Assembly: GCF_020253525.1 (NCBI RefSeq)
Contig: NZ_JADCBK010000070.1
Location: 1 to 52,817 of the forward strand
DNA: 52,817 nucleotides
Source of the DNA: Aquidulcibacter sp.
Lineage (GTDB): Bacteria > Pseudomonadota > Alphaproteobacteria > Caulobacterales > Aquidulcibacteraceae
Direction: 5' to 3'
Position numbers and translations under genes: made by a program. Positions 1,832 to 25,567 of the stretch are shown here, piece by piece (within the stretch, counting starts at the first letter, position 1; each line of letters opens with the position of its first letter). The notes under the pieces were generated by a model. That model was not told the DNA's origin. It ran no database searches and saw nothing but the letters and a program-made list of their open reading frames with translations.

Positions 1832-2410
1832 TTAGCGCGTTAGCCCCGGCACCCATTTCACATCCTCTGCCCCATTGGCATTGGCGCGGCGGCCCGCCAC
1901 AAACAATAAGTCAGACAAGCGGTTGAGATAATGCAGAACAGAGTCGGAGACGACTTCGCCTTCGGTCTGCATCAAAGCGGCCACCTGCCGCTCTGCCCGC
2001 CGGGTGATGGTGCGGGCGACATGCAAATAGGCCGATAAAGCGGTTCCACCGGGCAAGATGAAGGAATCAAGGGCTGGAATGGCCGCATTCATCGCGTCGA
2101 TTTCGTTTTCAAGCCGCGTCACTTGATTGGGCAAAATGCGCAAGGCTTCCCAGCCTAAGGGCTTACCGCGTTCGGGCGTCGCCAAATCGGCACCCAGATC
2201 AAACAAATCATTTTGGATGCGACCCAAAATCGCGTCGAGCTCAACATCGGCTGCACTATGCAGACGGGCTACACCAATGGCGGCATTGGCTTCATCGACG
2301 GCGCCATAGGCCTCCACCCGGGCATCAAATTTCGGCACGGTCTCGCCTGTAGCCAGGCTGGTGGTGCCCTTATCGCCGGTGCGCGTGTAAATCTTATTGA
2401 GCGTGACCAT
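1832..2410 (-). CDS. Cob(I)yrinic acid a,c-diamide adenosyltransferase, PduO type
   Basis: Transfers the adenosyl group of ATP to cob(I)alamin, giving adenosylcobalamin for B12-dependent enzymes. The 192-residue protein starts MVTLNKIYTRTGDKGTT, the N-terminal ATP-binding motif of PduO-type enzymes. YGAVDEANAAIG, RRAERQVAAL and YLNRLSDLLFVAGRRAN follow in the usual order. I chose the ATG at 2410, which matches the usual family start, over a GTG four codons upstream. No cobalamin riboswitch fits in the short leader. The adenosylcobalamin-using enzyme it serves is not in the window; mmsA at 21.4 kb is only pathway-adjacent. Confidence 0.93.
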   Translation of the reverse strand: MVTLNKIYTRTGDKGTTSLATGETVPKFDARVEAYGAVDEANAAIGVARLHSAADVELDAILGRIQNDLFDLGADLATPERGKPLGWEALRILPNQVTRLENEIDAMNAAIPALDSFILPGGTALSAYLHVARTITRRAERQVAALMQTEGEVVSDSVLHYLNRLSDLLFVAGRRANANGAEDVKWVPGLTR

Positions 2411-2530
2411 GTCAGTTCCCACTAGCAGACTTAAAAATCTTCGTTGTTCCTCGCTCCCTTAGCGGGCGCCTGAAAAAACGCAACGCACAGACACCTCGAA
2501 CTTGCGCGCAATCGTGCTAAATCATCTGGC

Positions 2531-2860
2531 ATGACCCACCCTATTCGTTTGATCCTGATTGTTTTGGCTGTGGCTTTTACGGCGCTGATTGGCTGGGCCA
2601 GTGTGCGCGGTGACTTTGCGGCAGAGTTTGGTGCCATTACGGCAATGCCGTGGGGCCGGGTATCGCTTTTTGACCTCTATCTTGGCTTTGTGCTCTATGG
2701 GCTTGCGGTTTGGGTGATTGAGCGCGACGTGAAGACGCGGCTTTTTTGGGCCGTGCCCATTATCTTTCTCGGCAATGCGTGGTCTCTCATTTGGGTAGCG
2801 GTACGCTGGAAACAAATCCTCGCCCGTCTCAAGACGGACCCAATTGATCCTAAGTCTTAA
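2531..2860 (+). CDS. Small membrane protein, DUF1475-like
   Basis: A 109-residue protein of unknown function with three predicted membrane segments (about residues 6-24, 50-67 and 75-95). A conserved-looking PWGRVSLFDLYLGF block sits before segment 2, and FLGNAWSLIWV lies in segment 3. This arrangement resembles DUF1475-type or related small membrane proteins, but I give that from memory with modest confidence. It is divergent from the adenosyltransferase gene and overlaps the 3' end of hpt by 11 bases in convergent orientation. Confidence 0.65.
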   Translation: MTHPIRLILIVLAVAFTALIGWASVRGDFAAEFGAITAMPWGRVSLFDLYLGFVLYGLAVWVIERDVKTRLFWAVPIIFLGNAWSLIWVAVRWKQILARLKTDPIDPKS

Positions 2861-3374
2861 CCGCACAAATATCGGGAAGGCCGCGGCCTTTGCCCGCATC
2901 ATCCAAGCCATAACCAACCAAGAAGCGGTCTGGCAGGTCAAAGCCCAGATAGTCCGGTGCGGGCAGTTCTGCGGCCAAAGGCTTGCGCGCCAACAGGCAG
3001 GTCAAAACCTCCCGCGCGCCCTTGGACGCCAGATAGGATTTGGCAAACAGGATCGTCCGGCCCGTATCATAGACATCATCGACGATCAGAACTTGTTTGC
3101 CCCCAATCGGCTTTTGCAAATCTGCCAGCACGTTAATGCGGCCCCCACTTTCTTGCGCGTCACCATAGCTGGATAGCCAAAGAAAGTCTGTGCGCGGGGT
3201 TTTGCCATGGCGGGCAAGGCCACGCACCACATCGGCCATAAAGACAAAAGCACCCTGTAACAGGCCGACCACCACGGCATCCTCGTCCAACCGGCCAGCA
3301 ATCTGGCCCGTCAGCTCTTGAATGCGGCTGTCGATTTCGTGTGCGGAAACCAGAATATCCAAATGTGACGTCAC
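2850..3374 (-). CDS. hpt: Hypoxanthine phosphoribosyltransferase
   Basis: Purine salvage enzyme that converts hypoxanthine (and usually guanine) plus PRPP to the nucleotide monophosphate. The 174-residue length is normal for the family. The PRPP loop is VLIVDDVYDTGRT, and the C-terminal FLVGYGLDDAGKGRGLPDIC is the typical HPRT base-binding and closing segment. The start is a GTG at 3374 preceded by AGGCGGGA; no ATG lies near the expected N-terminus. It is downstream of, and probably co-transcribed with, the DUF3426 gene (21 bases apart). Confidence 0.93.
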   Translation of the reverse strand: MTSHLDILVSAHEIDSRIQELTGQIAGRLDEDAVVVGLLQGAFVFMADVVRGLARHGKTPRTDFLWLSSYGDAQESGGRINVLADLQKPIGGKQVLIVDDVYDTGRTILFAKSYLASKGAREVLTCLLARKPLAAELPAPDYLGFDLPDRFLVGYGLDDAGKGRGLPDICAVKT

Positions 3375-24091: not shown

Positions 24092-24688
24092 CTAACCCAC
24101 CACCCGCATTGTCAAATTAATCCGTCCACCGCCCGGCACCAAGGTGGAGGAGCCTGACAACACCCGGTCGATGCCGTGGTAGAAGTGCCGCGACGCTCCA
24201 CCCAAAACAACCACGTCGCCGGAATTGAGCTTTAGGGACGATGTCGGCCCGCCGCGTGTTGCCCCGCCGAGACGGAAGATTGCGCTATCGCCTAAAGAAA
24301 TAGACACGACCGGGGCGGCGCGGTCGCGCTCATCGGCGTCTACATGCAAGCCCATTTTGGCCCCGTCGCGATAGAGATTGACGAGGCAAGCCTGTGGCGC
24401 AACCGGGTAATGGGCGACGGCCTGCCAAAGGTCGAGCAGGGCTTGGGGTATGGCCGGCCAAGCTTGACCGGTGACGGGGTGGGTCGCCTGATAGCGATAG
24501 CCGCCCTCGCGGTCTGACACCCAACCAAGTGGCCCCAAATTCGTCATCTCCACACTAAAGGGCTTGCCGGTCTTGGGCATGGTCGGGCGGAAGAAGGGCG
24601 CACGCGCAATCAAGGGCGCTAAACTCGCCAGCAGCGCCTCTTGCGCGGGCCGATCGAGATAGGCGGGATGGAAAGACAGGCCATTCAT
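24092..24688 (-). CDS. alkB: AlkB-type 2-oxoglutarate/Fe(II) dioxygenase
   Basis: Repairs alkylated bases such as 1-methyladenine and 3-methylcytosine in DNA or RNA by oxidative demethylation. The 198-residue protein has the complete iron site, H115-x-D117 in GLHVDADE and H171 in HFYHG. The 2-oxoglutarate and substrate motif is R189-x-N191 to R195 in RINLTMR. The N-x-Y-x-x-G-x-x-M-x-x-H-x-D spacing is exactly that of AlkB. No GTTC-N7-GTTC or Ada-type site is evident upstream. It converges tightly with zapE (seven bases). Confidence 0.94.
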   Translation of the reverse strand: MNGLSFHPAYLDRPAQEALLASLAPLIARAPFFRPTMPKTGKPFSVEMTNLGPLGWVSDREGGYRYQATHPVTGQAWPAIPQALLDLWQAVAHYPVAPQACLVNLYRDGAKMGLHVDADERDRAAPVVSISLGDSAIFRLGGATRGGPTSSLKLNSGDVVVLGGASRHFYHGIDRVLSGSSTLVPGGGRINLTMRVVG

Positions 24689-24703
24689 GCGATCAGATCA
24701 ACC

Positions 24704-24732
24704 TTGAAGATTCTACCAGTTACGTCTACTTT
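24704..24732 (+). promoter_or_regulatory. Promoter of the PIN-domain cassette
   Basis: TTGAAG (24704-24709) and TACTTT (24727-24732) are spaced by 17 bases in the divergent gap from alkB. The start point would fall near 24739, about 39 bases before the ATG at 24778. Confidence 0.5.
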
Positions 24733-24777
24733 AGAGGCGGAGTGCGTAAGACGGGACCGCATTGGAAAGCTTTACCC

Positions 24778-25050
24778 ATGAACGCTATCGACGCTGTTGC
24801 GAAGGCAAAAGAATTAGCGATTCTTGTGTTTGGCGAAGACGCTGGCTCGCCACCTCGGCTTGAGGCTGTCGCACCCGTTTCTGCCTCGATCTGGGATGTA
24901 ACCCTTTCCTTCAAGCGTGTCGCGCCATTAGCTTCCGGCAGCTTAGCACTCAATATGGCCCCGCACTTGGTCAATTATCAAAAGCTGTTGCGGATTGACC
25001 TTGAGACAGGGGAACTCATCTTCGTGAAAGATGCGGAATCGGTGTCATGA
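24778..25050 (+). CDS. Small partner protein of a PIN-domain cassette
   Basis: A 90-residue protein of unknown function. It begins with a helix (MNAIDAVAKAKELAILVFG), followed by beta strands with IWDVTLSFKR and YQKLLRIDLETGELIFVKD. That pattern of helix, W-x-VTLSF strand and Y-K-x-x-x-ID-x-x-TG-E hairpin occurs in small proteins encoded beside PIN domains. I recall it as a recurring pair but cannot name it. Start chosen at the ATG with GGAAAG eight bases upstream, not at a GTG 12 codons earlier. It overlaps the next gene by ATGA. The local base composition is more AT-rich than the neighbours, suggesting transfer. A protective or antitoxin-like role is conjecture. Confidence 0.65.
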   Translation: MNAIDAVAKAKELAILVFGEDAGSPPRLEAVAPVSASIWDVTLSFKRVAPLASGSLALNMAPHLVNYQKLLRIDLETGELIFVKDAESVS

Positions 25051-25508
25051 TTTCATTGGCACTGGACACCAATTTGATGGTGTTCTTGTGCCTCGCGCTG
25101 GCAGACAAGCGGCATATTGGTCAGCATAAGCGGATTTCAAATTTCACTGCCCAAGACTTTCGATCTTTGCTTGGTATCATCAGTCAAGCCGACGAATTGG
25201 TTTCCACGCCTTATTCTTTGTCCGAAGTATCCAATCTTTTAAACGTCTCGCTCAAGCGCAAAATCGATCTCACCATCTTGCGAAGTTTTGCCGCTCTCAT
25301 TGCGGATACACACGAAATTGGGGTCCGTGCGTCTGATTGCGCCAAGTCGCCAGAGTTTTCGGTTTTTGGCCTCACAGATGTGGCGTGGCTTTATCATTTG
25401 GACCCAAAGACGGTTTTGGTAAGCACGGATGAAATGCTGATTAATTATGCGCGGTCCATGGGGCGAAACGCAGATTGGTTTCGTCCCTCAAATCAAGCGC
25501 GAGGATGA
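25047..25508 (+). CDS. PIN-like domain protein, probable ribonuclease
   Basis: A 153-residue protein that reads as a PIN-fold nuclease. The acidic residues expected of the active site are all present: D7 in LALDTNL, E60 in SLSEVSNLL, D111 in GLTDVAWL and D128 in VSTDEML, in the right order and spacing. There is no signal or membrane segment. It is longer than a typical VapC toxin (about 130) and has an inserted helical segment between D7 and E60. Its start is inside the stop codon of the small upstream gene, so the two are made together. Whether it is a toxin, an RNA-processing enzyme or a defence effector cannot be told from sequence. Confidence 0.72.
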   Translation: MISLALDTNLMVFLCLALADKRHIGQHKRISNFTAQDFRSLLGIISQADELVSTPYSLSEVSNLLNVSLKRKIDLTILRSFAALIADTHEIGVRASDCAKSPEFSVFGLTDVAWLYHLDPKTVLVSTDEMLINYARSMGRNADWFRPSNQARG

Positions 25509-25567
25509 TTTCGTACAAATCACTGCTTCCCAGTTTGTGGCCACCGCAGCACAAATCACAGACATAC

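What the first reader, a model, noticed from the sequence alone, without database searches (positions are those of the whole stretch)
24704..25508. Two-gene PIN-nuclease cassette with an uncharacterised small partner
Seen: a promoter, a 90-residue protein and a 153-residue protein overlapping by ATGA, inserted in AT-richer DNA between alkB and dnaK. The second protein has all four acidic positions of a PIN nuclease (D7, E60, D111, D128). Known: PIN nucleases are toxins (VapC), RNA-processing enzymes or defence effectors. The small protein does not look like a ribbon-helix-helix, AbrB or Phd antitoxin; its helix, VTLSF strand and ID-x-x-TGE hairpin suggest a separate small fold. Inference: an unnamed toxin-antitoxin-like or defence cassette. 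I regard it as the best candidate for an undescribed system here.
Basis: partly seen in the sequence, partly recalled or inferred. Interest (0 to 1): 0.65.

Follow-up and report, generated by a model that had tools for sequence, protein, structure and literature searches.

The report
Undescribed two-gene PIN-nuclease toxin-antitoxin-like cassette
A small mobile gene pair, found always together in bacteria from many phyla and on prophages and plasmids, encodes a predicted RNA-cutting nuclease and a small inhibitor-shaped partner, and probably acts as a toxin-antitoxin module that at times serves inside anti-phage defence operons; no family library or paper searched here describes it.

Summary
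Window 24778-25050 encodes a 90-aa protein and 25047-25508 a 153-aa PIN-type nuclease, overlapping by ATGA. They lie in an 893-bp low-GC stretch between alkB and dnaK, absent from six same-genus genomes that have an empty site. Neither protein matches Pfam, NCBIfam, PHROGs or PADLOC. A public genome scan returned 80 nuclease homologues from at least nine phyla, and all 80 have the small gene directly upstream. In 30 whole genomes the two families occur 1:1 (32 and 32 copies). AlphaFold gives a VapC-like PIN fold (Z 11-12.5) with all four acidic residues conserved. The partner is one helix on a four-stranded sheet, a cystatin/PepSY-like fold without a DNA-binding domain, so this is not canonical VapBC. 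Most copies stand alone. Some are embedded in Hma (DUF499/DUF1156/helicase) defence operons in two separate lineages; sister operons hold MazEF or VapBC there. Others sit at moron positions of prophages. Best explanation: a mobile type II toxin-antitoxin-like family with a PIN RNase and a cystatin-fold antitoxin, sometimes recruited into phage defence. Toxicity, neutralisation and defence are untested. The main rival is a sensor-effector defence pair.

The parts
24778..25050 (+). small upstream partner gene (90 aa), predicted cystatin/PepSY-like fold (helix 3-22, four antiparallel strands)
   Evidence: dN/dS 0.034 against G007
25047..25508 (+). PIN-domain nuclease gene (153 aa), predicted VapC-like fold; overlaps the first gene by ATGA
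   Evidence: dN/dS 0.088
25047..25050 (+). ATGA stop/start overlap (translational coupling); -4 is the commonest spacing in the family (26 of 89)
25065..25067 (+). codon of catalytic Asp7
   Evidence: 88/88 homologues
25224..25226 (+). codon of catalytic Glu60
   Evidence: 88/89
25314..25316 (+). codon of Glu90, an additional invariant acidic residue of this family
   Evidence: 89/89
25377..25379 (+). codon of catalytic Asp111
   Evidence: 89/89
25428..25430 (+). codon of catalytic Asp128
   Evidence: 87/88
24674..25566 (.). inserted cassette (bounds approximate): replaced by about 46 bp in same-genus genomes with an empty site; it also replaces the native alkB 5' end, so alkB here starts at a new ATG (24688, - strand)
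24703..24731 (+). possible weak promoter-like sequence TTGAAG-17-TACTTT; not significant
   Evidence: read by eye; hexamers unchanged in G007; consensus scan finds nothing on the + strand

Best explanation
The cassette is a mobile type II toxin-antitoxin-like module of an undescribed family. The downstream gene encodes a metal-dependent PIN endoribonuclease (toxin or effector). The upstream, translationally coupled gene encodes a small cystatin-fold protein made first, which binds the nuclease and keeps it inactive; I propose that conserved Arg/Lys residues of its sheet act near the acidic active site. When the partner is lost or inactivated, by plasmid or prophage loss, stress or phage infection, the nuclease cuts cellular RNA (tRNA or rRNA, by analogy with VapC) and stops growth. 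Genomes, plasmids and prophages carry it alone as an addiction or defence element, and some Hma/BREX-related defence operons have taken it in, probably as a backup abortive effector. Shown: the genes, obligate pairing, conserved catalytic residues, predicted folds, horizontal mobility, and occurrence in defence operons and prophages. Inferred: RNase activity, toxicity, inhibition by the partner, the trigger, and the defence role.
For: Obligate pair: 80/80 loci have the partner immediately upstream, mostly at -4 or +4 nt and rarely beyond -20 to +17. Copies match 1:1 in 30 genomes, and the same 5 of 385 class genomes are found with either profile. PIN fold with the VapC quartet intact. Partner is one small alpha-beta4 domain; matches include cystatins, the PepSY protein YpeB and the colicin M immunity protein, Z 6-8; several such proteins are inhibitors (established knowledge). 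Order (small gene first, overlapping start) as in type II TA operons. Mobility: empty sites in six relatives, low GC3, plasmids, prophages at spanin and late-activator/endolysin positions, and a duplicated 5' end of the DUF1156 gene flanking the pair in two Nostoc plasmids. TA-slot equivalence: the pair sits between Hma genes where a sister operon carries MazEF between the same genes, or others carry VapBC one gene further along. The Hma link arose in two tree-separated lineages with opposite gene order. Both genes are under purifying selection.
Against: No toxicity or neutralisation data exist. The partner has no DNA-binding domain, so classical autoregulation is unlikely. Between close relatives the partner is often at least as constrained as the nuclease, whereas TA antitoxins usually evolve faster. 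Low copy number (1-2 per genome) is unlike many VapBC families. A published two-gene PIN system, DS-5, needs both proteins for defence and is not a TA (PMC13092281). The partner's fold matches are weak (best Z 8.2; Foldseek E above 0.01).
Confidence: 0.6

Rival explanations
1. A two-gene anti-phage system in which the small protein is a sensor or activator needed for PIN nuclease action, not an antitoxin (as reported for DS-5: PIN plus DUF5830/AcrIF4-like protein).
For: Precedent for a non-TA PIN pair (PMC13092281). The pair is embedded in Hma operons and lies in prophages. The partner has strongly conserved charged residues (E29, E30, R66, K69, R86) and strong constraint.
Against: DS-5's DUF5830 was not found in five genomes that carry this pair, so it is not the same system. 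Most copies are solitary two-gene units, and the Hma slots are otherwise used by ordinary TA pairs.
Confidence: 0.27
2. A housekeeping RNA-processing or RNA-decay enzyme with an accessory subunit.
For: PIN folds also serve in rRNA and tRNA maturation; weaker fold matches include Utp24, Utp23 and HARP RNase P. Strong purifying selection.
Against: Patchy distribution (about 1% of 385 class genomes, 2 of 9 in the genus), empty sites in close relatives, and plasmid and prophage carriage.
Confidence: 0.08
3. A divergent VapBC: a canonical PIN toxin whose antitoxin is a degenerate VapB.
For: Top PDB fold matches of the nuclease are VapC-type proteins; operon order and overlap as in vapBC.
Against: The partner has no DNA-binding domain in the model and no Pfam or NCBIfam antitoxin match. 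No VapB fold appears among its matches, which is inconclusive.
Confidence: 0.05

Closest known systems
VapBC type II toxin-antitoxin systems (PIN toxin VapC)
   Same: PIN fold (Z 11-12 to many VapC structures), four acidic residues, small partner gene first with overlapping start, mobile, patchy distribution
   Different: Partner is a cystatin-like alpha-beta4 domain without a DNA-binding domain. The PIN sequence falls outside Pfam and NCBIfam PIN models and carries its own motifs: [HF]-[KR]-R-x3-[FY]-x3-D-[YF]-x2-L and invariant E90.
PIN-associated predicted antitoxins COG2442/DUF433, COG2886, COG2880, COG1753 and MerR-like (Makarova 2009, PMC2701414)
   Same: Small gene next to a PIN gene; also common in cyanobacteria and Chloroflexi
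   Different: All those families have predicted HTH, AbrB or RHH DNA-binding folds; this partner does not
DS-5 of DefensePredictor (PMC13092281)
   Same: Two genes, one a PIN nuclease; defence context
   Different: DS-5's partner has DUF5830 plus an AcrIF4-like domain; DUF5830 not found in five genomes with this pair
Hma / DUF499-centred BREX-related systems (PMC8565338, PMC12839542)
   Same: The pair lies between Hma genes in cyanobacterial plasmids and in Gemmatimonadota-type loci
   Different: The pair is an optional cargo, not a core gene; most copies, the window's included, have no Hma genes nearby
Cystatin, PepSY and colicin M immunity protein (fold relatives of the partner)
   Same: One helix packed on a four-stranded antiparallel sheet; several are protein inhibitors
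   Different: No sequence relation detected; weak Z (6-8)

Membership tests
PIN-domain nucleases | PIN fold (alpha/beta/alpha) | tested here: met
   AlphaFold pLDDT 92.8; Z 12.5 to PAE0151, 11.8 to an M. tuberculosis VapC (5x3t)
PIN-domain nucleases | conserved acidic active-site quartet | tested here: met
   D7 88/88, E60 88/89, D111 89/89, D128 87/88
PIN-domain nucleases | match to curated PIN sequence models (an aid to recognition, not a defining trait of the fold) | tested here: inconclusive
   No Pfam or NCBIfam PIN hit for the window protein; sub-threshold PIN/PIN_9 for one relative. The family is placed by fold and active site; NCBI names plasmid relatives 'PIN domain-containing'
VapBC toxin-antitoxin | VapB antitoxin with an N-terminal DNA-binding domain | tested here: not met
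   Partner model is helix plus four strands, no RHH/AbrB/HTH/Phd; no antitoxin family match
VapBC toxin-antitoxin | antitoxin gene first, coupled or overlapping with the toxin gene | tested here: met
type II toxin-antitoxin (general) | obligate two-gene module | tested here: met
   80/80 loci; 32/32 copies in 30 genomes
type II toxin-antitoxin (general) | toxin inhibits growth, antitoxin neutralises it by binding | not testable with these tools
   needs wet-lab work
type II toxin-antitoxin (general) | mobile, sporadic distribution | tested here: met
   empty sites, plasmids, prophages
Hma / DUF499-centred BREX-related system | DUF499 ATPase, DUF1156 methylase and helicase in the operon | tested here: not met
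   present around several relatives; the window's neighbours are zapE, alkB, dnaK and dnaJ
DS-5 defence system | partner with DUF5830 | tested here: not met
   PF19148 absent from five genomes carrying the pair; control rang in Haloferax
cystatin-like superfamily (partner) | one helix across a four-stranded antiparallel sheet | tested here: met
   (predicted model; Z 6-8, which is weak)

The most novel reading that the evidence does not exclude
A widespread, unnamed anti-phage module in which a cystatin-fold protein both inhibits a PIN RNase and senses infection or failure of a companion defence system, releasing the nuclease. It would be the first type II module known to me with a cystatin-fold, non-DNA-binding antitoxin, and it is reused as an embedded backup effector in Hma/BREX-related operons.
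Probability: 0.35. Interest if true: 0.78.

Novelty: new variant of a known kind. Interest (0 to 1): 0.62.

Why it matters
The pair is conserved across at least nine bacterial phyla, on plasmids and in prophages, yet neither gene is in Pfam, NCBIfam, PHROGs or PADLOC, so annotation and defence-finding pipelines miss it. If the partner is the inhibitor, it adds a new antitoxin fold for PIN toxins and a case of toxin-antitoxin-like modules used as interchangeable cargo of BREX-related defence operons, which makes the role of such embedded modules directly testable.

Tried and rejected
Pfam, NCBIfam, PADLOC and PHROGs scans of both proteins gave only chance-level hits. Profile searches of PDB sequences gave no relative of either protein, so the fold comparison carries the PIN assignment. 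The viral structure library gave no clear match for the partner. The first genome-contig query failed for lack of conserved stretches and was replaced by a closer alignment. tblastn against named phages found none; prophage copies came only from IMG/VR. The promoter claim is not supported by the consensus scan. Considered and rejected: chance ORFs (dN/dS and homologues), a canonical VapBC, DS-5, and a core Hma gene. A statistical enrichment of defence genes around all 80 loci was not attempted, because the family tally is by model, not by protein; I cite only specific embedded cases. Placement of the 'Gammaproteobacteria' locus L079 is doubtful: its flanks match the Gemmatimonadetes locus L076, so it may be a binning error. 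Mirror-tree correlation of the two proteins (r 0.66 against a shuffled maximum of 0.24) fits co-inheritance but does not prove binding.

Full report
OBSERVATION. The 90-aa protein is encoded at 24778-25050. The 153-aa protein is encoded at 25047-25508, with an ATGA overlap. Neighbours are an AFG1-type ATPase, an AlkB-type dioxygenase, DnaK and DnaJ. The stretch is AT-richer than its flanks, with GC3 0.53-0.56 against about 0.70. Against the homologous cassette of a sister species both genes are under strong purifying selection, dN/dS 0.034 and 0.088, so they are functional genes. The claimed promoter is weak and not supported by the consensus scan.

THE CASSETTE IS AN INSERTION. Seven other genomes of the genus lack it. 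In six of them with an intact site (L094-L099) the alignment leaves the window inside alkB and resumes just before dnaK: in five it breaks at window 24673 and resumes at about 25566-25567, with about 46 bp in between; in L099 the left arm ends earlier, inside alkB, and the right arm starts at 25552. The partial locus L100 of the seventh (G008) shows the same break. The insertion replaced the native start of alkB. Only the window genome and G007 hold it, at the same site. This fits a gain in their common ancestor.

THE PAIR IS OBLIGATE AND WIDESPREAD. Relatives of the nuclease in the family and class all had a small gene of one family upstream. A scan of 84,980 species genomes returned 110 relatives, of which 80 loci were kept; every one has the partner directly upstream on the same strand. 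The phyla named in the record titles include Pseudomonadota, Chloroflexota, Cyanobacteriota, Gemmatimonadota, Acidobacteriota, Latescibacterota, Tectimicrobiota, Actinomycetota and Bacteroidota. Spacing is mostly -4 or +4 nt. In 30 genomes searched whole, 21 of them with both profiles, the partner profile gives 32 hits, each adjacent to a nuclease hit. In 385 genomes of the class both profiles pick the same five. Neither gene was seen alone. Only 11 loci have a third co-directional gene within 40 nt downstream, so the module is normally two genes.

STRUCTURE. The nuclease alignment keeps D7, E60, D111 and D128 almost without exception, plus an invariant E90 and a family motif around H27-D37. 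AlphaFold (pLDDT 92.8) gives a PIN fold; best PDB matches are PAE0151 (Z 12.5) and many VapC toxins (Z 10.5-12). No Pfam, NCBIfam or PDB sequence profile recognises the window protein. The partner (pLDDT 86.3) is a 20-residue helix followed by four antiparallel strands. Structural matches are cystatins, monellin, YpeB (PepSY), VirB8/NTF2-like proteins and the colicin M immunity protein, with modest Z 6-8. It has no DNA-binding domain. Its most conserved residues are E29, E30, W39, T42, R66, K69 and R86; the window copy lacks E30, R66 and R86 and is a divergent member.

CONTEXT. In cyanobacterial plasmids and one contig (L006, L053, L125, L126, L127) the pair lies between a DUF499 ATPase (HmaC) with a 142-aa companion and a DUF1156 methylase (HmaB), with the helicase downstream where the sequence extends that far. 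In Gemmatimonadota-type loci L068, L073 and L079 the order is helicase, DUF1156, pair, DUF499. The two sets fall in different parts of the nuclease tree, so the association arose at least twice. Related cyanobacterial operons without the pair carry MazF with an RHH partner between the same genes (L132) or a VapC with a small partner between DUF1156 and the helicase (L128, L129). In two Nostoc plasmids about 50 codons of the DUF1156 5' end are duplicated upstream of the pair, a footprint of insertion. Hma is a phage-defence system class (PMC8565338; reclassified as BREX-related in PMC12839542, which mentions PIN nucleases only in passing). Prophage-like contigs carry divergent pairs directly after Rz/Rz1 spanin genes (L121-L123) and between a late transcriptional activator and an amidase (L124), typical moron sites.

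INTERPRETATION. The best reading is a toxin-antitoxin-like module: a PIN endoribonuclease held in check by a cystatin-fold partner made first and coupled in translation. For this speak the obligate pairing, the gene order, mobility, the slots shared with ordinary TA modules, and the inhibitor-like fold. It is not VapBC by membership, because the defining DNA-binding antitoxin is absent; it may still work like VapBC. The main rival is a sensor-effector defence pair. DS-5, a published PIN plus DUF5830 pair, needs both proteins and is not a TA (PMC13092281). DUF5830 was not found in five genomes with this pair, so it is a different system, but it shows that the rival is realistic. Between close relatives the partner is often at least as constrained as the nuclease, which is somewhat unusual for an antitoxin and keeps the rival alive.

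NOVELTY. Full-text searches for cystatin or PepSY with PIN and antitoxin found nothing, and the 2009 catalogue of PIN-associated antitoxins lists only HTH, AbrB, RHH and MerR-like families. The libraries are incomplete, so 'undescribed' means not found here.

Noticed in passing
G007 locus L093:449-1440 and G005 locus L094 (about 2158-3116): An insertion of about 1 kb between zapE (AFG1) and alkB in two same-genus genomes, coding a 192-211 aa membrane-like protein and flanked by a duplicated alkB 3' end; absent from the window genome.
   Followed up: partly
L126:7508-7657 and L127:7496-7657: Relic of the first 50 or so codons of the DUF1156 methylase gene upstream of the pair, an insertion footprint.
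   Followed up: yes
L126, L127, L128-L132 (cyanobacterial plasmid Hma operons): The positions between Hma core genes hold interchangeable cargo: MazEF, VapBC, DUF433 plus an endonuclease-domain gene, ubiquitin-like/ThiF cassettes, or this pair.
   Followed up: partly
L079: MAG labelled Gammaproteobacteria whose pair and flanks match a Gemmatimonadetes MAG (L076): likely a binning error.
   Followed up: partly
window 24688 (- strand): alkB of this genome starts at a new ATG created at the cassette junction; its original N-terminus was replaced by the insertion.
   Followed up: partly
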